Source: Solirubrobacterales bacterium
Lineage (GTDB): Bacteria; Actinomycetota; Thermoleophilia; Solirubrobacterales; Solirubrobacteraceae
NCBI GenBank assembly: GCA_003134675.1
Contig: PLBZ01000090.1
Coordinates: forward strand, 1 to 23,191
Length of the DNA stretch: 23,191 nt
Direction of reading: 5' to 3'
Within the stretch, counting starts at the first letter, position 1, and every line of letters starts with the position of its first letter. The translations under genes were made by a program, and so were the position numbers. This document shows positions 2,235-20,939 of this stretch, one piece after another. The notes beneath the pieces were generated by a model that saw nothing but the letters and a program-made list of their open reading frames with translations, was not told where the DNA came from and made no database searches.

Positions 2235-3779
2235 TCAGTGAAGGGACTCTGCCGAGCGTGCGATGCCGAGCATCTGTTCGTTGGTGAGATCCTCGAGTAG
2301 CGTGTTGGTGAGCCAGTACAGGACCGGCCCCTGGCGCCAGGCGACCGTGTGGATGTGGCCCCCATCCGCAAAGATCCTGTAGGCGACACCACCGATCTTG
2401 TGGGTTTCGGTGGGATGGGCGACGACCGGTGGGTTCAGCCAGTCGGTGCCCTCCAAGTCGTAGTAGCCGCCGAGACCGTTCTGCTGCCAGACCACTACGT
2501 AGGCGTGGCGCAGATGGTGGTCATTGTCCAGCAAGGTATAGGCGCGCACCGGCTGCTGCACAGCGGGACCGGTCTGCAGCGACGGGTAAAGAACGCGGAA
2601 GGGCACATTGATAGCGGCCTTGACGAGTTCATCCTGGCCCGAAGAGTGCGTGGGGTATAGCCCGATCGACGCGGCACTGGAGCCGGTCGAGCGGTGATGT
2701 CCGTGGTCGCTGCGCTGGGGTGGGGTGATCGGCTTGGGTGCGCTGACTTTCTGCTGGCCGTGCAGAAAGTCAGCGAGCGTGGTCTTCGCCAGCGAAGGCG
2801 TAGTCGTGACAAAGGACTGTCCCTTGAACCCATAATTTCCGTTGGCGACCCGGAACTTGACTTGGCGCAGCGGCTTGCTCTGCGAGAACCCGACCAGCTT
2901 GGCGAGATCGATTAGCTGGCTCGCTGAAGAGCTGAACCCGGCGGTGACGATTGCCCGGCCCACCGCTTTGGCGACCTGGTCGATCTGGCCGATCGCGTTT
3001 TCAGGCGAGATCTGCTCGCGCAGGTTACGGAGGAAGTCCTGTTGGCGGGCTACGCGCACGAAGTCCGAGTCACCGTGACGGTAGCGCACGTAGCTCAGGG
3101 CGTTGTTGTAGCAGAGCTTCTGGTAGCCCGGCTGGAGGTTGATTTCGGAATATTCTTCGCCACCTTCGCCTTTGACGTGAAGGTAGCGGTGGTCGACGTT
3201 GATGTAAACGCAACCGAGCGTGTCGACGACCTTGATGAAGCCACCAAAATTCACGTCGACGATGCCGTTCAGCTTCAGGCCGGGGAACACTTCGTGCTCG
3301 ATTGTCTCGGCCGCCAGCACCATCGATCCCCTGGTGCCACCCAGCAGCGCGCCGTAGGTGTAGGCCGCGTTGATCTTTGACTGCGGGTAGTACTGGCCCT
3401 TGTCGCTTTTGATGTTTACAAGCAGGTCGCGCGGGATCGAGAGCACCGAGGTTTGGCCCTGTTCGGGGTCGAAGCGGACGAGCAGGATCGTGTCGCTGTG
3501 TGGCGGGTCGCTGCGGTCATATACGTCTTTCGAGGCGGCTCGCCTGTCAGAGCCGAGGATCAGGTAGGTCTCCGGGCCCCCGCTGTATTCGGGGACGACG
3601 AGCCCCTTGGGCGCATGGATCTGGTTGACGCTGGGGAAGATGTCGTGTGCGAGGCCGCTTGCGGTGTTCAGCGCGACCGTCGCCGTCGCCCCTCCGCTGA
3701 GCAGCACGATCAGCACGCCGCCGATCACGAAGCGCTTCCACATGCTCATCCACAGGGAGGGTGGGTGCTCGTCATCCAT
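2235..3779 (-). CDS. LytR-CpsA-Psr (LCP) family protein, cell-wall polymer ligase
   Basis: A 514-residue membrane-anchored LCP protein. This family transfers lipid-linked glycopolymers onto peptidoglycan outside the cell. Residues 1-15 are cytoplasmic and 16-36 form one transmembrane segment. The LCP domain (about 70-260) has the family motifs: GSDRR (76-80), HSDTILLVRFD (94-104), LSIPRDLLV (113-121), KINAAY (135-140) and a YVRYRH-DSDFVRVARQQDFL block (230-250) with the Arg residues that bind pyrophosphate. C190 and C223 could form a disulfide. After a His/Ser-rich linker (about 350-370) comes a ~140-residue C-terminal region that I do not recognise as the usual LytR_C domain. The start is the first ATG after the intergenic gap; later in-frame ATGs at codons 11 and 13 are possible. 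It is divergent from the SEDS gene, so both belong to envelope building. Confidence 0.92.
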   Translation of the reverse strand: MDDEHPPSLWMSMWKRFVIGGVLIVLLSGGATATVALNTASGLAHDIFPSVNQIHAPKGLVVPEYSGGPETYLILGSDRRAASKDVYDRSDPPHSDTILLVRFDPEQGQTSVLSIPRDLLVNIKSDKGQYYPQSKINAAYTYGALLGGTRGSMVLAAETIEHEVFPGLKLNGIVDVNFGGFIKVVDTLGCVYINVDHRYLHVKGEGGEEYSEINLQPGYQKLCYNNALSYVRYRHGDSDFVRVARQQDFLRNLREQISPENAIGQIDQVAKAVGRAIVTAGFSSSASQLIDLAKLVGFSQSKPLRQVKFRVANGNYGFKGQSFVTTTPSLAKTTLADFLHGQQKVSAPKPITPPQRSDHGHHRSTGSSAASIGLYPTHSSGQDELVKAAINVPFRVLYPSLQTGPAVQQPVRAYTLLDNDHHLRHAYVVVWQQNGLGGYYDLEGTDWLNPPVVAHPTETHKIGGVAYRIFADGGHIHTVAWRQGPVLYWLTNTLLEDLTNEQMLGIARSAESLH

Positions 3780-3897
3780 GGGGTATCGGCACGCAGCAGC
3801 TCATATCGACATAAGGCAAGCTAACGCCGCCCCCCGACGACGTGCTCGTCCGGTAAGGGTAGCGAGCCTGTCGGCGTGCCCGCGCCGGGATGCGAGG

Positions 3898-11700: not shown

Positions 11701-13196
11701 GCGCGACCGTCCCGTCGTCGGAAGACGCCCCTCGCGCCGTCGTTGTGCGCGGTCACATGCTGCCGACGTGGTGGGCGCTCACGGGACTGGTGGTCTTGGC
11801 CGCAGGCCTGCGGTTCTCGACGCTCGGGTCCCAGAGCCTGTGGTACGACGAGGCGTTCACCCCCGTGCACGTGCTTCACGCGGATCTCGGGGCGACGCTG
11901 CGAGCGGTGGTGCACACCGAGAACACGCCGCCACTCTGGTACGTGCTCGTCTGGGCGTGGTCGCGGGTCCTCGGCACCGGCGCCGTTGCGCTGCGCCTTC
12001 CCTCGGCGCTGTTCGGGGTGGCGACCGTGCCGGTTGCGTGGGCGATCGGACGTGAGCTGTCGGGACGCCGTGCGACAGCGATCGCGGCGGCCGCCTTTGT
12101 CGCCGTGAACCCTCTGTTCGTGTGGTACTCCCAGGAGGCGCGCGCGTATGCGTTGTTCGTGCTGACGAGCGCCCTGACGATGCTCTGCTTCCTGCGCGCC
12201 AAGCGAGAGCCAACTCCGGGGCGTCTGGCAGCCTTCGCGGTGAGCGCCTCGCTAGCGCTCTTGAGTCACTACTTCGCGGCTTTCCTCGTGGCTCCGATGA
12301 TTCTCTGGCTGCTGCTGCGCAGCCGGCGCGCGTCCCTCCTCGCGTGCGGCGTGGTGGCCCTCGTGGGCTTTGCGCTGCTTCCGCTGGCCTTCGCTCAGGG
12401 CGGTCACGGCGCGCAGTGGATTGAACGGTGGGCTCTCTCCAGCCGGCTGCAGGCGATCCCGCAGTACTACCTGGTGGGCGAGTCGGGCGCACCGCTCGGA
12501 CACGGCATCGAGTTGCTCGTGGCGCTGACGATCCTCGCCGGTCTCGGGTTTGGCTTGTGGCGCGTGCTCGAGCCTCGCGAGGAGCGCGGCGCGCTGATTG
12601 CGCTGGCGGTGGCGGCGAGCGGGGTGCTGGCGCCGATCGTGCTCGTTGCCTTCGGCGCCGATTACCTGGCGCCGCGCAATCTAGTCGCGGCGATGATTCC
12701 CGTGAGCGCCACGATCGCGGTGGTCGTCACGGCACGGCGGGCGGGGCGCGTCGGCGCGGTGCTTGCCGCGCTGATCGCACTTGCGTTTCTGGCGATATCG
12801 ATCGACGTCGATCTCAGCCCGCGCCTGCAGCGCGGCGACTGGCGCGGTGTCGCCAAGGTTCTGCGTGGCACGAGGCACCACGATCGTGTAATCACGACTG
12901 TGGAGCTCGGCGCGGCGCCACTGGAGTACTACCTGCCGCCGCTGCACAACCTAGCCCGTGGCGGGACGGTGACGGTGAGCGAGATCGACGAGACTGGCTA
13001 CGCGCCCTTGAAGGCCTCCGCTAGCAGCCCGCCGGTGTCCGGCTTTCACTTGCTCAGCCGCCACGATGTGAGCGGTCTGATCGTCTATCGCTTCGTCTCG
13101 CAGACGCCGCGGAAGGTCTCCGAGGCGACGCTGCGCCGGCACGTGATCACCGAAGCGCACCCCGAGGTGCTCGTCTCACCTCAGGCGCCGTTGTAG
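11697..13196 (+). CDS. GT39-like integral membrane glycosyltransferase (PMT/ArnT superfamily)
   Basis: A 499-residue polytopic GT-C enzyme expected to transfer a sugar from a polyprenyl-phosphate donor to a lipid, protein or polysaccharide on the outer face. The first outer loop has SLWYDEAF with catalytic-type D51-E52, then TENTPPLWYVLVWAW (about 74-88), ALRLPSALFG, and FVWYSQEARAYALFVL (about 140-155), all hallmarks of the ArnT/GT39-like family. The last ~110 residues are a soluble outer domain with YYLPPLHNLARGG. The start GTG 11697 is chosen because GTGA overlaps the preceding stop; in-frame ATG 11757 (MLPTWWALTG) is the alternative. The 3' end overlaps the convergent deacetylase-like gene by 16 bases. 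Confidence 0.88.
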   Translation: MSATVPSSEDAPRAVVVRGHMLPTWWALTGLVVLAAGLRFSTLGSQSLWYDEAFTPVHVLHADLGATLRAVVHTENTPPLWYVLVWAWSRVLGTGAVALRLPSALFGVATVPVAWAIGRELSGRRATAIAAAAFVAVNPLFVWYSQEARAYALFVLTSALTMLCFLRAKREPTPGRLAAFAVSASLALLSHYFAAFLVAPMILWLLLRSRRASLLACGVVALVGFALLPLAFAQGGHGAQWIERWALSSRLQAIPQYYLVGESGAPLGHGIELLVALTILAGLGFGLWRVLEPREERGALIALAVAASGVLAPIVLVAFGADYLAPRNLVAAMIPVSATIAVVVTARRAGRVGAVLAALIALAFLAISIDVDLSPRLQRGDWRGVAKVLRGTRHHDRVITTVELGAAPLEYYLPPLHNLARGGTVTVSEIDETGYAPLKASASSPPVSGFHLLSRHDVSGLIVYRFVSQTPRKVSEATLRRHVITEAHPEVLVSPQAPL

Positions 13197-14269
13197 GAGG
13201 AGGGGGCCGGCGGGTCTTCGCGGATGCCCGCGATCAGCGCCAACAGCGCCGCCGGCGTGGTTTCACCGAGGACGCGCAGCCGGTGTAGGCGGTAGGAATC
13301 GTCGCCGGAGTGCGCCCAGCCGGGAATCACGGTTGTCGATCCCGCGTAGCCGGCGGCTCTGACCGCGGCGACGACTGTCGCGTTGTAGTGTCCGGAGGGG
13401 TAGCAGAACCAGTTGACCGCGACGTGGTAGCGCTGCTGCAGGACCCGGCGCGCGACAGCCACCTGGTAGTGCAGCTCCTCAGCGCTCAGCGTGATCAGGT
13501 CGGCGTGGCTGAATCCCTGCGTGTCGAGCTCCCAGCCTGCGGCGATCAGGCCGCGGACCTGTCCCTGGCCGAAGCCGCCCTGCGATGGTGGCAGGCCGGA
13601 CAGCTGGATGTTCTCGACGCCGACCCAACCGAGCCGCTGCAGGACTCCGAGCGCCTGCGTGTATTGGGACTGGTAGCCGTTGTCGAAGCTGAGCACGATT
13701 GGTTTGCCTGCTCCCAGCGATGCACCGCTGCGCCAGTTGGCCTCGACCTGGTCGAGGGTGACAGCGTGCCAGCCGGCGCGCTTGAGCGCTTGCATCTGCG
13801 CGGCGAACTCGGCCGGCGCCACGTACAGCCCGGGGAACGGCGCGCCCGGCGGTGGCGCGGCGATCACGTGGTACATCAGGATCGGCACCGGCTCGGTATT
13901 AGAGCCGCCCGCCCGCCCCCGGCCGGTCCCCTGACTCGTGCTCAGCGGGGGCCGCGCCTGTCCCTGGGGATCGCTTGCGCCAGAAGGCGTGTGGCTCGAG
14001 GCAGTCTGCGAGGAGACGGGGGTGTTTCCCGATTGGATACCGGAGATATCGCCCAGGAGGACGACGCCCACGGACAGGATCAGCAGCGTGATCAGTCCGG
14101 CGGCTTGATAGCGGTGGCGGCGGATTGCTCGCCGACTGGCCTCAGGACGGTTGCGCAGCTCCTCGGGAGGCTCTATCTGTGGCGAGGGCACTGGCGAAGG
14201 ATGGCATGAAGCCCGGGAGTTCGAGTAGTAGACGGCGATGAAGATCACCGCGGCGAAGAGCGGCATCAC
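13181..14269 (-). CDS. Polysaccharide-deacetylase-like (CE4/NodB fold) membrane protein with degenerate metal site
   Basis: A 362-residue protein. Residues 1-15 are hydrophobic and a second hydrophobic helix lies at 55-73. A Ser/Gly/Pro-rich linker (75-125) leads to a NodB-homology domain (127-350) starting PVPILMYHVI. Motif 1, normally TFDDG, is SFDNG (194-198), so the metal-binding second Asp is Asn197. Motif 2, normally HTxSH, reads TQGFSH, so the first His is Gln251 while His255 remains. Motif 3 is FCYPSG (288-293) and the late LHRL His is present. CE4 enzymes need the Asp-His-His metal triad for deacetylation, so this protein is likely inactive or altered, perhaps carbohydrate-binding (inference). 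Start: GTG 14269 is followed at once by ATG 14266; the helix-like sequence runs further upstream to a stop at 14291-14293, so a CTG start at 14290 is conceivable. It lies 51 bases downstream of the response regulator, probably the same transcript. Confidence 0.82.
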   Translation of the reverse strand: MMPLFAAVIFIAVYYSNSRASCHPSPVPSPQIEPPEELRNRPEASRRAIRRHRYQAAGLITLLILSVGVVLLGDISGIQSGNTPVSSQTASSHTPSGASDPQGQARPPLSTSQGTGRGRAGGSNTEPVPILMYHVIAAPPPGAPFPGLYVAPAEFAAQMQALKRAGWHAVTLDQVEANWRSGASLGAGKPIVLSFDNGYQSQYTQALGVLQRLGWVGVENIQLSGLPPSQGGFGQGQVRGLIAAGWELDTQGFSHADLITLSAEELHYQVAVARRVLQQRYHVAVNWFCYPSGHYNATVVAAVRAAGYAGSTTVIPGWAHSGDDSYRLHRLRVLGETTPAALLALIAGIREDPPAPSSYNGA

Positions 14270-14320
14270 GATCGCGACCCAGGCGGTCAGTCACCGGCGC
14301 AGCCCGCCCAGTTCAATCGT

Positions 14321-14992
14321 CTAGCTCGCATCGTCCAGGCGATAGCCGACAGAGCGGACCGTGAGGATCGGCGCCGGGTTCTCGGGAGTGCCCAGCTTGC
14401 GCCTGAGATACCCGATGTAGACGTCCACGACATTGGTCTGCGGGTCATGCCGATAACCCCACACTGTGGACAGGATCTCCTCACGTGAGAGGACCTGACC
14501 GCGGTGGCGCATGAGATGGACGAGCAGGTCGAGCTCGGTGCTCGACAGCCGCACCGGCTCCCCGGCCCGGTGCACTTCACGAGTGAGCAGGCTGACCTCG
14601 ATATCGCCCACACGCAGCGATGTCGTGGGGGCCTGTGCGGCCAGGCGCAACTGCGCGCGTACCCTGGCGGCCAGCTCGGCAAGCGAGAAGGGCTTGACCA
14701 GATAGTCGACCGCGCCCGCATCGAGACCGGCCACGCGATCCTCGATCTCACCGCGTGCGGTGAGCACAATCACTGGTACCGTCACCTCGGCTTGGCGCAG
14801 CGAGCCGAGGATCTCGAGACCGTCGCGGCCGGGCAGCATCAGGTCGAGCACGATCAGATCGAAGCTTTCCTGCAGCGCGCGCCGCTCACCTTCGGCCCCA
14901 TCCAGAACGGCCTCCACCGCAAACCCCTCGGCCTCGAGGCCACGCTTGACGAAGTCGACGATCCCGGGCTCGTCCTCGATCAGGAGAATCAT
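14321..14992 (-). CDS. OmpR/PhoB-family response regulator
   Basis: A 223-residue two-domain transcription factor. Receiver domain (1-118): acidic pocket E6-D7, phospho-acceptor D50 (IVLDLMLPG), T78 (VLTAR) and K100 (VKPFS). The C-terminal winged helix (about 130-220) has LSSTELDLLVHLMRHRGQVL and the recognition segment TNVVDVYIGYLRRKLG, ending VGYRL. ATG 14992 is chosen because it begins at MILLIEDE; the 38 residues possible upstream are not receiver-like. No histidine kinase is visible on either side, so its partner lies elsewhere or is lost. It is divergent from the ApbE/SLBB operon across a 104-base, relatively AT-rich gap. In many actinobacteria such a regulator sits next to ferric-reductase/FMN-binding/ApbE genes, so it plausibly controls that operon. 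Confidence 0.95.
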   Translation of the reverse strand: MILLIEDEPGIVDFVKRGLEAEGFAVEAVLDGAEGERRALQESFDLIVLDLMLPGRDGLEILGSLRQAEVTVPVIVLTARGEIEDRVAGLDAGAVDYLVKPFSLAELAARVRAQLRLAAQAPTTSLRVGDIEVSLLTREVHRAGEPVRLSSTELDLLVHLMRHRGQVLSREEILSTVWGYRHDPQTNVVDVYIGYLRRKLGTPENPAPILTVRSVGYRLDDAS

Positions 14993-15096
14993 CGCTCGAC
15001 AATAAAGCGCAAAAGGGAGAAGAGAGGGAAACGACCATAAGAACTCTCTAACCGGCTCTTTAGTGAGAAGAAGACAAAGTTGTCGAAGATGCCCAT
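14993..15096. promoter_or_regulatory. Divergent control region between response regulator and ApbE operon
   Basis: This gap is AT-rich compared with its surroundings. It holds an inverted pair TCGACAA (14996-15002) and TTGTCGA (15080-15086), one near each start codon. It also holds a tandem pair CTCTCTA (15044-15050) and CTCTTTA (15056-15062) with a 12-base period, the kind of direct repeat that OmpR-type regulators bind. Autoregulation and operon control by the regulator are inferred. Confidence 0.4.
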
Positions 15097-15282
15097 ATGA
15101 GAACATTGGATTCGAGGCGTTCTCGAGACGCCGCTCTACGCCGGCTGGCGCGGTGCAACCGCTGGCTGCTCGCTGGCGCCGTGACGCTCACGGGGGTGCT
15201 CTCGGAGGTCGCCGCGCAAGCCTTCCCCGGCAACTCAGCCTCGGAATCGAGTTTCCCCCCGGTGGTGTCCGGGGGATCGTGA
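15097..15282 (+). CDS. Small single-TM protein, first gene of ApbE/SLBB operon
   Basis: A 61-residue protein. A basic N-terminus (RRSRDAALRRLARCNRWL, about 7-24) is followed by one membrane helix (about 24-41, LLAGAVTLTGVLSEVAAQAF) and a Ser/Pro/Gly tail. Small proteins with an RRLxRxNRWL-helix layout precede ApbE in other actinobacterial ferric-reductase-type clusters as I remember them; there they have no assigned function. The coding call is supported by this pattern, its position 10 bases before apbE, and the membrane topology (positive-inside). The SD is weak (GAAGA). It may anchor or assemble the redox complex; this is inference. Confidence 0.68.
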   Translation: MRTLDSRRSRDAALRRLARCNRWLLAGAVTLTGVLSEVAAQAFPGNSASESSFPPVVSGGS

Positions 15283-15292
15283 GGGATCCGCG

Positions 15293-16252
15293 ATGCCTGT
15301 CGCCCTGAGCACGCCCGTGGAGAGCAGGTGGGAGGCGCTTGGCACGAGCGCGGTCCTGCTGGTAACCGATCCCAACGCTCTGGGGCGGGCACGAGCGATC
15401 GTCAAGCGAGAGTTGGAGGAGATCGATCGCGCGTGCAGCCGCTTTCGATCGGACTCGGACTTGCAGCGTGTGAATGCTGGCGCGGGGCGATTCATACCGG
15501 TCGGCCAGTTGCTGATCGAAGCGGTGCAGGTCGCGCTGCGCGCCGCTGAGCTGACCAACGGGAACGTCGACCCGACGGTCGGCGACGCCTTGGTGCTCGC
15601 TGGCTATGACCGCGACTGGCGGCTGTTGGAAAAGCCAGCCGATGAACCTGAGCAAGCTGAAAGCCCGACCATACAAGCGCACGTCACGCCCGGATGGCAG
15701 GCGGTCGAGATCGACCGGGAGCACGCCGCAATACGCATCCCAACCGGCGTGCGCCTGGATCTGGGCGCCACCGCGAAGGCGTGGGTGGCGGATCGTGCCG
15801 CAAGCGCGGTGCACGAGGCGACCGGTGCGGGCAGCCTGGTCAGCCTGGGCGGCGACATCGCCACTGCCGGCGCCGCTCCCGAGGGTGGCTGGCGGATTTA
15901 TGTCACTGACGACCACCGCAGCGCTCCGGGTGGGCAGGGACAGACGATTTCGATCGTCTCGGGTGGTATCGCCACTTCCAGCACGTCAGTGCGGCGCTGG
16001 AGTCACAAAGGTCAGACGAGGCATCACATCATCGATCCCATGACGGGTACGTCCGTCATCCGGACTTGGCGCACCGTGAGCGTCGCGGCGGGGACGTGCC
16101 TGGACGCGAACATCGCCAGCACCGCGGCGCTCATCCGTGCGGGCTGCGCTCCGGCGTGGCTCGAGCAACTCGGCTTGCCCGCACGCCTGGTGAGCACCGA
16201 CGGCGCCGTGCGCCTGGTGAGTGGCTGGCCCGCACAGAGTGGGTCGCTATGA
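15293..16252 (+). CDS. apbE: FAD:protein FMN transferase, ApbE family
   Basis: A 319-residue enzyme that covalently attaches FMN, from FAD, to Ser/Thr of target flavoproteins using Mg2+. Motifs: RWEALGTSAVLL near the start, CSRFRSDSDLQRVNA (44-58), DPTVGDALVLAGYD, DLGATAKAWVADRA (variant of DLGGIAKGYA), SLVSLGGDIATAG, HHIIDPMTGT and the late VSVAAGTCLDANIASTAALI. The N-terminus has no lipoprotein or TAT signal, so it should act in the cytoplasm. GAGGGA six bases upstream serves as SD. Its usual substrate, an FMN-binding-domain protein, is not in the window. The stop overlaps the ATG of the following 25-codon ORF (ATGA), so translation is coupled. Confidence 0.93.
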   Translation: MPVALSTPVESRWEALGTSAVLLVTDPNALGRARAIVKRELEEIDRACSRFRSDSDLQRVNAGAGRFIPVGQLLIEAVQVALRAAELTNGNVDPTVGDALVLAGYDRDWRLLEKPADEPEQAESPTIQAHVTPGWQAVEIDREHAAIRIPTGVRLDLGATAKAWVADRAASAVHEATGAGSLVSLGGDIATAGAAPEGGWRIYVTDDHRSAPGGQGQTISIVSGGIATSSTSVRRWSHKGQTRHHIIDPMTGTSVIRTWRTVSVAAGTCLDANIASTAALIRAGCAPAWLEQLGLPARLVSTDGAVRLVSGWPAQSGSL

Positions 16253-16326
16253 CACTGATCGGCGCCGTTGGTCCCAGCGCATACTGGTATCTCACGCGCT
16301 CCACAGTGGGGTCGTCTGAGAAATGA
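16249..16326 (+). pseudogene. Remnant of ferric-reductase-like/cytochrome b transmembrane gene (25 codons)
   Basis: Translation gives MTLIGAVGPSAYWYLTRST, then VGSSEK and stop. 'GPSAxWYLTRSTG' is how I remember the first helix of actinobacterial ferric-reductase-like transmembrane proteins, which normally lie between apbE and the SLBB gene and run about 200 residues. Here the similarity stops after WYLTRST. Both junctions are preserved: ATGA overlap with the apbE stop and ATGA overlap with the next start at 16323. The simplest reading is an internal in-frame deletion that spared translational coupling. A genuine 25-aa leader peptide cannot be excluded. Confidence 0.5.
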
Positions 16327-17642
16327 GCCTGCAAGCCGATCCTGCCAGCCTGCCACGGCTACTCACGGGCATCCCCGTCCACGGCGCCATGGACCTCAAG
16401 GAGCATGTGGCGATTCACGGCGAGGCACCCTTCGCTAAGCGCCGTGAGCGACGGGGAGCAGGCACGCTGATCGACCTCGTCGAGCAGGCTGGTCTGCTCG
16501 GCCGCGGGGGCGCCGCATTCCCTGCGGCGGCGAAGATGCGGGCGGTCGTCGGTGCCGGCCGATCTCGGATCGGCGTACGACCGATCGTGCTTGCCAACGC
16601 GGCCGAGGGGGAGCCCGCGAGCCTCAAGGACCGCGTGCTCCTGGAGGGCCTGCCTCATCTGGTGCTCGACGGGGGAGTCCTGGCCGCACGGGCCGTTGGA
16701 GCCGACGAGCTGATCCTCTGCATCGATGAGTCGGCCGGGCCGGCCCTGCAGAGCGCGACCAGCGCGATCAGAGAGCGCGAGCGGACCGGTGGCGACGCTC
16801 TGAAGGTCAGTATCCAGCCCGTTCCCGTGGGATACGTCTCGGGCCAGGAGTCGGCGCTCGTGAACCTCTGCAGCGGCGGGCCGGCAAAGCCGACGCTCAC
16901 CCCGCCGATGCCATTCCAGCGAGGAGTCCGTCGGCGCCCGACATTGATCAACAATGCCGAGACGCTCGCCCACCTCGCGCTGATTGCTCGCTACGGGCCA
17001 CAGTGGTTCCGCCAACTCGGCACGCAGGCGCATCCCGGTTCGACGCTGCTCACGCTCTCCGGCGCCGTCACCCACCCCGGCGTGTACGAGATCGAGTATG
17101 GTGCGCCACTCGCGTCGCTGATCGAGGCCGCCGGCGGCACGAGCACTCCAATTCGCGCTGCTCTGCTCGGCGGCTACGCGGGCACCTGGTTCGACGGTGC
17201 AGCGATCTCCACGCTCGCGCTGTCCAACGATCACCTGGCTCCTCACGACGCATCGCTCGGCGCGGGGATCGCCGTGCTTCTTTCCCAGGAGACATGTCCG
17301 GTGGCCGAGACCTCACGTGTCACACGTTGGCTGGCGGGACAGAGCGCCGGTCAATGCGGGCCCTGCGTGCACGGTCTGGGGGCGATAGCCGGTGCGATCG
17401 AGGAGTTCGCCGCCGGCACTGCGTCGGCCGAGACGGGACAGCGCACCGTCCGCTGGGCTTCGCAGGTCAAGGGACGCGGCGCCTGTCGTCACCCGGATGG
17501 AGTCGTAGGCTTCGTCACGAGTGCCTTGGATGTATTCGCCGAGGAGTTCGCCGACCACGCCCGGCATGGGCCATGCGATGCGTGCTCGCGGGCGCGCGAA
17601 CTGCCTTTGCCGATGCCAATCGAGCTGGCTACGGCCGCGTGA
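16323..17642 (+). CDS. NuoF/SLBB-domain flavoprotein (NADH dehydrogenase 51-kDa-like)
   Basis: A 439-residue protein related to complex I NuoF and RnfC, which pass electrons between NAD(P)H, FMN and Fe-S centres. FMN/NADH-binding fold: GLLGRGGAAFPAAAK (57-71), NAAEGEPASLKDR (92-104) and GYVSGQESALVN (170-181). An SLBB-like region (about 240-290) includes TLLTLSGAVTHPGVYEIEYG. The Fe-S end is incomplete against NuoF: SAGQCGPCVHG supplies C345 and C348, C388 lies in GACRHPDG, but the first Cys of the NuoF triad is Ala342. C418 and C421 form an extra CxxC near the C-terminus and could help. Its start overlaps the upstream remnant (ATGA). In related clusters it would link a ferredoxin to a membrane cytochrome; both partners appear broken here. 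Confidence 0.87.
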   Translation: MSLQADPASLPRLLTGIPVHGAMDLKEHVAIHGEAPFAKRRERRGAGTLIDLVEQAGLLGRGGAAFPAAAKMRAVVGAGRSRIGVRPIVLANAAEGEPASLKDRVLLEGLPHLVLDGGVLAARAVGADELILCIDESAGPALQSATSAIRERERTGGDALKVSIQPVPVGYVSGQESALVNLCSGGPAKPTLTPPMPFQRGVRRRPTLINNAETLAHLALIARYGPQWFRQLGTQAHPGSTLLTLSGAVTHPGVYEIEYGAPLASLIEAAGGTSTPIRAALLGGYAGTWFDGAAISTLALSNDHLAPHDASLGAGIAVLLSQETCPVAETSRVTRWLAGQSAGQCGPCVHGLGAIAGAIEEFAAGTASAETGQRTVRWASQVKGRGACRHPDGVVGFVTSALDVFAEEFADHARHGPCDACSRARELPLPMPIELATAA

Positions 17643-17646
17643 GAGA

Positions 17647-17805
17647 ATGAGCGTGCGCCTGAAGGTGAATCCGATCGTGCTGGCGGTGGGTATTACGCGC
17701 GGCTGGTCTTCTGCGCTGGCCGGTGTGGGCGCCGCTGTCGCTGTACTGACGGCTGTGGTCGAAGCGCCAGGCGAGGACGTCGAGCGCTTAAGCGTAAACG
17801 CATGA
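17647..17805 (+). pseudogene. Possible internally deleted ferredoxin gene (52 codons, no cysteine)
   Basis: The product begins MSVRLKVNPI, matching the N-terminus of small actinobacterial ferredoxins as I know them (VNPI followed by C-x5-C). The next residues are VLAVGITRGWSSALAG and no Cys occurs in the whole 52-residue product, so it cannot hold a cluster. The end (AAVAVLTAVVEAPGEDVERL) could be what is left of the usual C-terminal helix near the last cysteine, which would mean an in-frame deletion of the core. It sits 4 bases after the SLBB stop and its own stop overlaps the next ATG (ATGA). Alternative: an unrelated small hydrophobic protein that replaced it. Confidence 0.45.
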
Positions 17806-17996
17806 CAGCGCTACGGGCATTTCCGCAGGCGGTCTGGGAGTTCATTGTCGGCGATGACTGGCGCACTGCACTGGGTGTGGTACTCGCGCTGGCGATCACC
17901 GCCCTAATCGCCACAACGAGCGTTGCGGCATGGTGGGTGATGCCGATCGCGGTGCTCGGCCTGCTCGGCCTCTCGCTCTGGCGCGCCTCCCGCTGA
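17802..17996 (+). CDS. Small two-helix membrane protein, last gene of ApbE/SLBB operon
   Basis: A 64-residue protein: an amphipathic N-terminal stretch (MTALRAFPQAVWEFIVGDDW), then two hydrophobic helices (about 22-41 and 43-58, AWWVMPIAVLGLLGLSLW) and a short basic end. The FIVGDDWR segment followed by two helices resembles small proteins that close similar actinobacterial redox clusters as I remember them, with no assigned role. Its ATG overlaps the preceding stop (ATGA), so it is co-translated with the ferredoxin-like remnant. It converges on ftsH with a 5-base gap. Confidence 0.68.
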   Translation: MTALRAFPQAVWEFIVGDDWRTALGVVLALAITALIATTSVAAWWVMPIAVLGLLGLSLWRASR

Positions 17997-18001
17997 ATGG
18001 A

Positions 18002-20029
18002 TCAGGAGATCACGGCTGGCTCTTCGCGACGCGCGGGCACACCCGCTGCCGTGTACGCGTCGAGTTCGTCCAGCGTCTCGGTCTTCAGTAGCGCCTGCGC
18101 GAGGCTCTCCAGCTGATCGCGGTGGTCGCCGAGCAGGTGTGTGACCTGCTGATGGGCGAGGTCGATCAGCCGCCTGACCTCCTCGTCGATGAGGCGCTGG
18201 GTGGACTCTGAGGTCGCGCTCACACCGGGTAGGAACGGTCCCTCGCCGTCGGCGGGGAGCACGGCGATCGGGCCGACCGCCTCGCTCATCCCCCAGCGCC
18301 CAACCATCTGCCGGGCGATCTGGGTGAGCTGCTGAATGTCAGACTCGGCACCGGTCGTGATCGTGCCGTAGACGATCTCCTCGGCGACCCGACCGCCGAG
18401 GGCAACGCGAATCTTCGCCTCGAGATCTTCACGGGAGTAGGAGACACGGTCTGAGTCCGGAGTGGAGAGGGTCACGCCGAGTGCCATCCCGCGAGGGATG
18501 ATCGAGACCTTGCGTACCGGATCTGCGCCGGGTGTGAGCATGCCCACGAGGGCGTGCCCGGACTCGTGATAGGCGGTTCGCTCGCGGTCGGCGGCAGAGA
18601 GCAGGATGCCGCGTGGTGAGCCGAGCATGATCTTCTCCAGCGAGTCGGTGAAGTCGCTCATCCGTACCTTCTCGTGGCCGCGGCGCGCCGCGAGCAACGC
18701 GGCCTCGTTGGCGAGGTTGGCGAGGTCCGCCCCGACCATGCCGGGGGTGCTGGAGGCGATCGCCTGCAGGTCGGCGTCGTCGTCTAGGGGTATCGAGCGG
18801 GTGTGGACCTCGAGGATTTCGACACGCCCCTTGCGGTCGGGGGCTTGCACGGTCACCCGCCGGTCAAAGCGTCCGGCACGCAGGAGTGCAGGGTCTAGGA
18901 CGTCGGGGCGATTGGTTGCCGCGAGCACGATCACGGCCTGGGAGGACTCGAACCCGTCGATCTCGGTGAGGATCTGGTCGAGCGTCTGCTCGCGCTCGTC
19001 GTTGGCGCCGGTGACCGACACCGAGCCTTGGCGCGAGCGCCCGATCGCGTCGAGCTCGTCGATGAAAATGATCGCCGGCGCTGCCTCCTTGGCCTTGGCG
19101 AACAGATCCCTGACGCGCGATGCGCCGACGCCCACGATCGCCTCGATGAACTCCGAGGCTGAGATCGAGAAGAAGGCAGCGTGCGCCTCGCCAGCGACGG
19201 CGCGGGCGAGCAGTGTCTTACCCGTACCCGGTGCTCCGGAGAGCAGCACACCGTGGGGCATGCGCCCGCCGAGGCTCCCGTAGCGGTCGGGATTTCGCAG
19301 GAAGTCGACGATCTCTGAGAGCTCGGACTTGGCCTCGTCGATCCCCGCGACGTCGGCGAAGGTGACGCGGATCTTTTCTGGGTCCACGCGGCGCGCCTGG
19401 GAGCGCCCGAAGTTGCCCAGCGCGCCCATGCCGCTGGCGCCCTTCGCGGCGCGGCGGGCGATCAGCACGAACAGGCCGACGATCAGCAACGTCGGGCCGA
19501 AGCCGAGCAGTAGCTCGGTGAGCAGCGATTTGCTTTCGCTCGTCGATTCGGCGTTGATCTTCACTGCCTTTTCCTGCAATAGCGCAGACAGCTGGCTGCC
19601 GTTCCAGAAGCTCGGCACCTGGGTGGCGAACAGCTTGGTGGGCTTTGCTTTCTTATCGGTCGACGGGTAGCGCAGCTTGGTCTTGAACTTGCCCTGGATC
19701 GTGTCTCCCTTGGAGGAGATCGCTGCGACCGAGCCTTCCTTGACCTGTTCTAAGAAGTACGGGCTAAACGGAACGGTTACCCGCTGTTCACCTGAGGAGG
19801 GCTGGAAGAGCAGCAAGGACAGCCAGTTCAGCGCGATCAGGATCAGTACGAACCACAGAAAGCCGGGTCTGCGGTGTGCCGCAGGACCCTTCGGCGTCTG
19901 CTCGGGCATGCCACGCCCGTCGGGCGCGGGGGAGACCTGCCAGCCCCGCTTGTCGCGTGGCATCGGCGGGTGCGCATCCGCCCGGCTCGCGCTCAGGTGA
20001 TTGGGCTCGTTTGGCGATGTATCGGGCAC
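18002..20029 (-). CDS. ftsH: FtsH-family ATP-dependent zinc metalloprotease
   Basis: A 675-residue membrane AAA+ protease that unfolds and degrades membrane and regulatory proteins. An extended polar N-terminus (1-54), TM1 (about 56-75), an outer domain (80-168) and TM2 (about 171-192) lead into the AAA domain: Walker A GAPGTGKT (265-272), Walker [10 protein letters not shown] (320-328) and second region of homology [20 protein letters not shown] (371-390). The protease domain has HESGH (488-492) and TTGAESD with the third zinc ligand D564. The substrate-gripping pore loop, usually FVEMFVG, is FIEAIVG (294-300): the aromatic residue is Ile298. The '[13 protein letters not shown]' variant suggests a divergent FtsH subgroup. 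GTG 20029 is preceded by AAGGCGG and by a 7-bp inverted repeat. Confidence 0.95.
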
Positions 20030-20286: not shown

Positions 20287-20667
20287 TCAGACGACGTGCA
20301 CTGCGAGGTCACGGCCGATCGCGGCGGCGATGCGACGCAGATCATCAGGATCGCTGGTCACGACCAGATCTCCCCGGTCAAGCGCGGTGACCACGACCGC
20401 GGCGTCAACCAGATCACGCCCATCACTTGCCGCAAGGGCCGCGCCGGCAGAGCGCGCCTGCTGCTCGGTGAACGGCTCGATGCGACACCCGCGCACGAGT
20501 CGCGACAGCCGCGCCTGGGGCCCGCCTCGCCAAGCTTGGCCCAACACAACCGTCGGGAGCGTCGGATACATCCCACGTTCGAGCAGACGCCTGTGCAGTC
20601 GCCACACGGATTTCGAATCGCGTTCGGCCGCGATCAACGCGCCCGCATCGTAGGTGACGCCACTCAC
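20287..20667 (-). CDS. vapC: PIN-domain ribonuclease toxin, VapC family
   Basis: A 126-residue PIN-domain protein. The acidic residues expected around the Mg2+ site are visible: D7 in TYDAGALIAAER, E15, D85/D88 in GRDLVDAAVV and D106 in VTSDPDDL. VapC toxins cleave RNA, often tRNA or rRNA, when freed from their antitoxin. The GTG start at 20667 overlaps the TGA of the upstream antitoxin gene (GTGA), so translation is coupled as in most vapBC operons. The gene ends 50 bases from the tRNA-CAT gene on the other strand. The targeted RNA is unknown. Length and motif spacing are normal and the toxin looks intact. Confidence 0.88.
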   Translation of the reverse strand: MSGVTYDAGALIAAERDSKSVWRLHRRLLERGMYPTLPTVVLGQAWRGGPQARLSRLVRGCRIEPFTEQQARSAGAALAASDGRDLVDAAVVVTALDRGDLVVTSDPDDLRRIAAAIGRDLAVHVV

Positions 20668-20939
20668 GCGGCGCGACGGGGCTCGCGCTTACGGCCAATC
20701 CCCGCGGCGTCGAGCACCGCGTCGGCCTTGGCTAGCTCCTCCGCCGAGATCGGCCCATGTTCGGCTTCCCACTCCGCGACCCCGGCCAGACCGTCCTGGA
20801 GACGAACCTCAGTCTCCAAAGCGCTCACGGACGCCTCGTTCAACCAGGCCGACAGGCTCATACCCCGGCGTTTGGCGGCCTGCTTGGCGGCATCCGCGAC
20901 CGACTCTTCCAAGGCGACGGAGAGCTTGCGAACGGGCAT
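20664..20939 (-). CDS. vapB: Antitoxin partner of VapC (VapB-like)
   Basis: A 91-residue protein. The N-terminus (MPVRKLSVALEESVADAAKQ, then RRGMSLSAWLNEAS) looks like a ribbon-helix-helix DNA-binding domain of the CopG/Arc type that dimerises and represses its own operon. The C-terminal half is acidic and Ala/Glu-rich (EWEAEHGPISAEELAKADAV), suited to wrap and block the toxin, and ends in a basic tail. ATG 20939 is preferred to a longer frame because the RHH begins there and a TGCTACTAT promoter element lies just before it. No SD is present, so the mRNA is probably leaderless. Confidence 0.85.
   Translation of the reverse strand: MPVRKLSVALEESVADAAKQAAKRRGMSLSAWLNEASVSALETEVRLQDGLAGVAEWEAEHGPISAEELAKADAVLDAAGIGRKREPRRAA

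What the first reader, a model, noticed from the sequence alone, without database searches (positions are those of the whole stretch)
14321..17996. Redox operon that kept its flavin machinery but seems to have lost heme, Fe-S and FMN-acceptor partners
A response regulator without a kinase is divergent from a six-gene coupled cluster: 61-aa TM protein, ApbE, cytochrome remnant, SLBB/NuoF flavoprotein, ferredoxin remnant, 64-aa TM protein. Related clusters normally contain a ferric-reductase cytochrome, an FMN-binding protein and a ferredoxin. Either this is an operon in decay, or a reduced system in which ApbE and the SLBB protein work with the small membrane peptides. ApbE and the SLBB gene show no disabling change in their flavin motifs, which argues against simple neutral decay.
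Basis: partly seen in the sequence, partly recalled or inferred. Interest (0 to 1): 0.7.

Follow-up and report, generated by a model that had tools for sequence, protein, structure and literature searches.

The report
Eroded operon with C-terminal flavin tails
A bacterium carries a half-eroded electron-transfer operon that still keeps its flavin-attaching enzyme, and comparison with relatives suggests that such enzymes hang flavin on the very last serine of a floppy, membrane-anchored protein, a kind of target I did not find described.

Summary
Same-genus relatives show the full operon: kinase-RR, a cytochrome-like gene (in most), a one-TM 'tail' protein, ApbE, MsrQ-like cytochrome, NuoF-like SLBB protein, ferredoxin. 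In the window, deletions removed kinase, cytochromes, ferredoxin and the tail's linker. The same fusion ORF is on 7 contigs in the protein set and other deletion alleles exist, so this is erosion rather than one misjoin. ApbE, SLBB and RR stay conserved. The 'missing' genes are on contig C89 of the same bin, beside no ApbE of this subtype. The main correction: I found no FMN-binding-domain gene inside these clusters. The likely FMN acceptor is the family of the 61-aa protein: TM helix, disordered linker, C-terminal SGGS* (94 of 109 homologues), which fits the 7-residue ApbE motif. Tail endings covary with ApbE subtype: Asn-type with [ST]G[AG]S*, Glu/Lys-type with T..S* endings such as VTRTS*. 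I think this ApbE survives because it is the only Asn-type one found in the bin. Flavinylation is inferred, not shown; one genome (G138) and four loci with other endings do not fit.

The parts
14228..14308 (-). Remnant of the sensor kinase (first TM helix, with an in-frame stop), running into the start of the polysaccharide deacetylase ORF 13181-14269
   Evidence: E 4.6e-9 to a relative's kinase, best of 200 shuffles 0.003
14321..14992 (-). Response regulator, intact
   Evidence: 0 of 91 invariant columns broken
15097..15282 (+). Shortened 'tail' protein (61 aa): N-terminal TM helix kept, linker lost, C-terminal PPVVSGGS* kept
15259..15279 (+). Seven codons PVVSGGS before the stop: proposed FMN attachment site (last Ser)
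   Evidence: motif from PMC12052999 section 8
15293..16252 (+). ApbE, Asn-type, intact
16109..16111 (+). Codon of Asn273, at the column of position 280 (Asp) of chain 4xgw_A
16249..16326 (+). Remnant of the MsrQ-like/ferric-reductase gene: about 19 codons of its start and 6 of its end
16323..17642 (+). NuoF-like SLBB flavoprotein, intact
17647..17676 (+). First ten codons of the ferredoxin
17674..17805 (+). Shortened permease-like gene X fused to the ferredoxin start
17802..17996 (+). 64-aa membrane protein that pairs with gene X in relatives; not part of the redox operon

Best explanation
The locus is a second, eroding copy of an MsrQ-like/NuoF-like electron-transfer operon. In the intact operon NADH electrons would pass through the NuoF-like SLBB protein and a ferredoxin to a membrane cytochrome (FRD) and on to FMN carried by a one-TM disordered 'tail' protein; the Asn-type ApbE would attach that FMN to the tail's C-terminal serine (...PVVSGGS*). 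In the window, deletions removed the kinase, cytochromes, ferredoxin and tail linker. ApbE is retained because it is the only Asn-type ApbE found in the bin and serves in trans the full-length SGGS tail of the C89 cluster, which has cytochromes, ferredoxin and kinase but no Asn-type ApbE. Shown: anatomy, deletions, conservation, motif, covariation. Inferred: FMN on the last serine, the electron path, the trans service.
For: Full operons in relatives. 28 of 30 and 14 of 14 N-terminally recognised tails end [ST]G[AG]S*, against 0 of 239 other genes; 94 of 109 database homologues end SGGS, with conservation confined to exactly seven residues, the length of the known minimal ApbE motif. ApbE subtype and tail ending covary. 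G141 lost the operon's ApbE, its single detected ApbE is Glu/Lys-type, and its tail ends TRVS. Of 8 SG[AG]S/TGGS tails without ApbE in the fetched stretch, 7 are in genomes with an Asn-type ApbE elsewhere. 17 of 20 genus genomes with a window-type ApbE have no FMN_bind match. The bin's three ApbEs are one Asn-, one Glu/Lys- and one Asp-type.
Against: No flavinylation was observed. These ApbEs show no clear signal peptide (L041 is borderline), and positive-inside charge favours a tail outside in only 15 of 22, though in the window clearly (+5 against -1). The motif has Gly where the published one has Ala, and Pro where it has Asp. G138 has an SGGS tail but only Asp-type ApbEs were found (85% complete). 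Four Asn-type loci end in Cys-containing tails (L095, L096, L098, L099). The Asn replaces a metal-ligand Asp, so these ApbEs might be altered in activity. The bin is 67% complete, so another Asn-type ApbE could be missing. Retained SLBB and RR duplicate C89 genes and are not explained by this. The exact 61-aa protein was not found in the protein set.
Confidence: 0.55

Rival explanations
1. Plain decay: a redundant second copy is being lost by random deletions; ApbE, SLBB and RR have simply not been hit yet and the 61-aa ORF is debris.
For: At least two further deletion alleles of the locus exist (P0006, P0007), one seemingly without SLBB; ApbE ranks high for broken invariant columns (3rd of 17, 2nd of 30); C89 holds duplicates of RR and SLBB; the exact 61-aa protein is not in the protein set.
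Against: 0 of 94 and 0 of 91 invariant columns broken in SLBB and RR; no disabling change seen in ApbE motifs; four recognisable junctions all keep frame (1 in 81 if random, but only junctions inside open frames are easily seen); the tail lost its linker but kept both ends.
Confidence: 0.3
2. The C-terminal SGGS/T..S endings are recognition or docking signals for ApbE or for another partner, not the place where FMN is attached.
For: No adduct shown; the ApbEs seem cytosolic while the tails are predicted to point outward; Cys-containing endings occur beside some Asn-type ApbEs.
Against: Seven-residue block ending in Ser like the known acceptor motif; endings exactly [S/T]GAS in L065, L070, L077; the Asp-type ApbE beside a standard FMN_bind protein in this bin also lacks a signal peptide, so that objection is not specific.
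Confidence: 0.25
3. A reduced but self-sufficient system in which ApbE and SLBB work with the two small membrane proteins.
For: ApbE, SLBB and the mini-tail are intact ORFs in one coupled cluster.
Against: No heme or Fe-S carrier remains in the cluster to link SLBB with a tail; the 64-aa protein pairs with gene X in relatives.
Confidence: 0.07
4. Assembly artefact: the deletions are misjoins.
For: The bin is a draft with N runs and wholly masked contigs elsewhere.
Against: The 52-aa fusion ORF heads a cluster of 3 sequences on 7 contigs, one of 284 kb, so not the window's 29.6 kb contig alone; no N in 13182-18002; 8 of 10 other window proteins tested gave essentially complete Pfam domains and 2 gave none. 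The 7 contigs may share a sample.
Confidence: 0.04

Closest known systems
MsrQ-like flavinylation gene clusters with a NuoF-like subunit (31 clusters in PMC8238504, section 10)
   Same: PF01794 membrane cytochrome, ApbE, NuoF-like protein (PF10589), Actinobacteria
   Different: Those clusters typically include an FMN-binding-domain gene; here none was found in the operon and a tail protein sits in its place. In the window the cytochrome is deleted
ApbE substrates outside FMN_bind: DUF2271 and DUF3570 (PMC8238504 section 7), Flavodoxin_4 and FMN_red (PMC11334425 section 6)
   Same: [S/T]GA[S/T]-like motif in a protein encoded beside apbE; in FMN_red the sites lie on an unstructured C-terminal extension
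   Different: Those are folded domains, FMN_red with a flavin pocket; the tail has no domain, only a TM helix and linker, and the motif ends at the last residue
Flavin-tag (engineered; PMC12052999 passages)
   Same: A seven-residue motif at a protein terminus suffices for ApbE
   Different: Engineered; the tails would be natural counterparts with Gly for Ala and Pro for Asp
Cytosolic ApbE of Klebsiella pneumoniae (PMC12052999 passage)
   Same: No signal peptide
   Different: Its target is a soluble fumarate reductase

Membership tests
MsrQ-like flavinylation cluster with NuoF-like subunit | PF01794 membrane cytochrome | tested here: not met
   Only a 25-aa remnant in the window; met in relatives and at C89
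MsrQ-like flavinylation cluster with NuoF-like subunit | ApbE and NuoF-like protein (PF10589) | tested here: met
   Pfam hits above cut-off
MsrQ-like flavinylation cluster with NuoF-like subunit | FMN-binding-domain gene in the cluster | tested here: not met
   PF04205 in 5 of 24 genus genomes, not at the fetched operon loci
ApbE FMN transferase | PF02424 match and conserved GGD, Ser and His-x-x-Asp-Pro segments | tested here: met
   168 bits; alignment
ApbE FMN transferase | Asp at the metal-ligand position (D280 of E. coli Ftp) | tested here: not met
   Asn273 in the window and Asn in all 55 window-type ApbEs; mapping, ligand from PMC4767422 passage
ApbE substrate | [S/T]GA[S/T] motif ending in the modified residue | tested here: inconclusive
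   Window has SGGS; exact [S/T]GAS in three homologues
ApbE substrate | Covalently bound FMN | not testable with these tools
   Needs co-expression and mass spectrometry

The most novel reading that the evidence does not exclude
Actinobacteria use a class of natural C-terminal flavin tags: membrane-tethered disordered polypeptides with no flavin-binding fold, whose last serine carries FMN as a swinging-arm electron carrier. At least two ApbE subtypes (Asn and Glu/Lys at the metal-ligand position) each read their own C-terminal code ([ST]G[AG]S* and T..S* endings such as VTRTS* and VTTSQS*), so that enzyme and tag coevolve as a specificity pair.
Probability: 0.55. Interest if true: 0.8.

Novelty: new variant of a known kind. 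Interest (0 to 1): 0.6.

Why it matters
ApbE genes without a recognisable substrate are an acknowledged open point (PMC8238504 section 7: 4% of genomes remained orphan, and less prevalent substrates are said to remain unidentified; [quoted passage not shown] A tail-only substrate would explain a group of them, would show that covalent FMN may work without a flavin-binding domain, and would offer natural enzyme/tag pairs for labelling. It also gives a reason why ApbE can outlive its operon.

Tried and rejected
Rejected: that the 61-aa and 64-aa proteins form one reduced complex (the 64-aa gene pairs with X elsewhere); that the remnants are one misjoin. Not settled: whether C67 and C89 come from one organism. 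Tetranucleotide correlation to 14 other contigs is 0.973-0.985 for C67 and 0.959-0.989 for C89, but same-genus relatives score 0.974-0.994 too, so the test cannot see same-genus contamination. dN/dS was not computed: at 60-65% protein identity I expect synonymous sites to be saturated; leave-one-out conservation was used instead. The single genome-contig scan gave three relatives only. No structure was predicted.

Weak spots of the counts. One search picked tails without looking at the C-terminus (TM helix plus disordered stretch near the ApbE start). L045 was mis-picked (its tail ends PVVSGGS), L046 and L141 were missed (their tails end SGGS and TTRQS), the L073 pick is the end of a kinase, L151 has no type (contig edge). 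L093 came from a search that used the C-terminal motif itself, so it is no independent support. In one search, 15 of 109 lack the motif; some (such as P0089) look cut at a contig end, but I did not examine the cause. L035 and L055 are the same locus; L035 was left out of the tail counts but both are in the 23-locus control set. Fisher's values ignore shared ancestry. Further ApbE forms (Asp with Lys) occur in G131 and G136.
Full report
Anatomy. The window is G000:C67:1-23191 of a 1.43 Mb, 98-contig bin, 67% complete, 0.6% contaminated. The order is taken as Solirubrobacterales because a same-family genome (G141, contig C6) matches a named Solirubrobacterales MAG record in contig length and gene layout.

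The ancestral operon. The fetched same-genus loci read, where complete, HK-RR divergent from CYB, tail, ApbE, FRD, SLBB, FDX; CYB was not seen in L046, L047 and L059, and L052 shows only ApbE-FRD-SLBB-FDX. FRD is a PF01794 protein and FDX a single-cluster ferredoxin. CYB has no Pfam match and is called cytochrome-like from its membrane pattern only. SLBB is NuoF-like (E 3e-50 to chain 1 of solved complex I).

What was lost. HK: part of its first TM helix remains, with a stop, and runs into the polysaccharide deacetylase ORF. CYB: no trace found. Tail: the linker is gone (61 aa against 102-179 in relatives) and both ends stay. FRD: about 19 codons of the start and 6 of the end. FDX: ten codons, fused to gene X, itself shortened, whose stop overlaps the start of the 64-aa gene, as in most relatives printed. 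X is weakly like iron permeases (OFeT_1, E 3e-4, below cut-off). The four recognisable junctions inside ORFs keep frame.

Not a single misjoin. The 52-aa fusion heads a 90%-identity cluster of 3 sequences on 7 contigs, one of 284 kb. Variants show other joins: P0006 joins X to the 64-aa gene; P0007 joins the FRD start to X, so FRD body, SLBB and FDX would be absent; P0008 and P0009 have X with its own start and the same short end. Their contigs were not seen. The 61-aa protein itself was not found; its best matches are four proteins of 67-101 aa.

What is kept. Within the genus the window breaks 0 of 94 invariant columns in SLBB, 0 of 91 in RR and 3 of 84 in ApbE (the ApbE columns are A165V, A214G, P254S).

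The rest of the bin. PF02424 matches lie at three places: C67 (window), C65 and C89. C89 holds HK, RR, CYB, a full-length tail ending APVVSGGS*, FRD, SLBB (65% identical to the window's) and FDX. Its ApbE is Asp-type, some kb away, beside a flavoreductase and an FMN_bind protein. C65 holds a third cluster with a Glu/Lys-type ApbE, a PF01794-like protein just below cut-off and a ferredoxin-like protein.

The tail family. A search with residues 1-55 of one tail gave 109 homologues, 94 ending SGGS; in those 94 the last seven positions are P 0.98, V 0.95, V 0.99, S, G, G, S 1.00, and entropy rises from 0.17 bits at -7 to 1.93 at -8. Names given by sources are 'hypothetical protein' or unrelated labels. 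Among fetched loci 28 of 30 and 14 of 14 more N-terminally recognised tails end [ST]G[AG]S*; all 44 end in Ser. Of 239 other genes in 23 loci none ends so and 38 end in S or T. Endings exactly [S/T]GAS* occur in L065, L070 and L077. Tails picked without the motif also precede ApbE in other families of the phylum (L097, L100 with SGGS). The published motif is D-x-x-[S/T]-G-A-[S/T], minimal length seven, FMN on its last residue; as a tag it works best at a terminus (PMC12052999, section 8 and passages).

Covariation. At the column of chain position 280 of 4xgw_A (E. coli Ftp ligand D280, PMC4767422 table passage; that the chain is the E. coli protein is recalled; mapping), the C89 ApbE has Asp, window-type ApbEs Asn, C65-type ApbEs Glu with Lys four residues on. 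Over 77 ApbE genes: Asn-type 55, of which 37 [ST]G[AG]S*, 3 [ST][RSQT]xS* (SSGS, SQGS, SSGS), 3 other Ser endings, 4 other, 8 no tail picked; Glu/Lys-type 19, of which 15 [ST][RSQT]xS* (VTRTS, VTTSQS and the like), 1 other Ser ending, 3 none; Asp-type 2, no tail picked, beside FMN_bind proteins; 1 untyped. On loci with a tail Fisher's test gives 1.4e-8 and 1e-10, ignoring shared ancestry. G141 is the best single case: operon without ApbE, tail changed to PVVTRVS*, one detected ApbE, Glu/Lys-type. Eight other tails have no ApbE for them in the fetched stretch and end SGGS, SGAS or TGGS; seven are in genomes with an Asn-type ApbE elsewhere (G000, G118, G140, G144, G131, G143, G245) and one is not (G138, only Asp-type found). 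In G143 that ApbE lies on the same contig just beyond the stretch; G245's tail was found by its motif.

Function. Established for the families: ApbE transfers FMN from FAD to Ser/Thr; NuoF-like proteins take electrons from NADH; MsrQ-like proteins are proposed to move them through the membrane. Inferred: the tail is an extracytosolic FMN carrier. Against it: these ApbEs have no clear signal peptide (13 of 14 N-termini below 1.2 mean hydropathy, L041 1.53), so modification would have to precede export, or the tail faces inward. The same holds for the Asp-type ApbE beside a standard FMN_bind protein in this bin.

Literature. Searches (held open-access library) listed no paper that by title or abstract describes C-terminal disordered ApbE substrates. 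Read: PMC8238504 (passages, sections 7 and 10), PMC11334425 (outline, sections 5, 6, 7, 15), PMC12052999 (passages, section 8), PMC4767422 (passages). None of these parts describes it; the nearest is FMN_red, whose sites lie on an unstructured C-terminal extension of a folded flavoprotein (PMC11334425 section 6).

Verdict. The finding itself is ordinary operon erosion, well seen. What it led to, a probable tail-only ApbE substrate class with an enzyme/tag code, is the interesting part and can be tested by one co-expression experiment. Confidence in the full explanation was lowered slightly (0.55) after one search gave the G138 exception.

Noticed in passing
L039 (G000:C65) 2620-3877; L134, L135, L137, L139, L140: Beside Glu/Lys-type ApbEs lie further TM-anchored disordered proteins with several internal TR[AST]SG motifs, possibly carriers with many flavins.
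   Followed up: partly
L095, L096, L098, L099 (one family, f53): Tails beside Asn-type ApbEs end in a Cys-flanked PSG segment (such as CYTTPSGSTVCS) instead of SGGS.
   Followed up: no
window 16323-17642: The NuoF-like protein has S-A-G-Q-C-G-P-C where Thermus complex I has S-C-G-K-C-T-P-C, so one Cys of that segment is absent; fetched relatives that I looked at share it.
   Followed up: no
window 17674-17996 and L079-L089: Gene X (weak match to an iron permease family) and the 64-aa membrane protein form a conserved pair in 11 genus relatives; function not studied.
   Followed up: partly
L073 (G128:C122): ApbE is followed directly by SLBB with no FRD match between them, like the window.
   Followed up: no
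window 20287-20939 (-): Two overlapping small genes that by eye look like a PIN-type toxin and its antitoxin; the smaller had no Pfam match, the larger was not searched.
   Followed up: no
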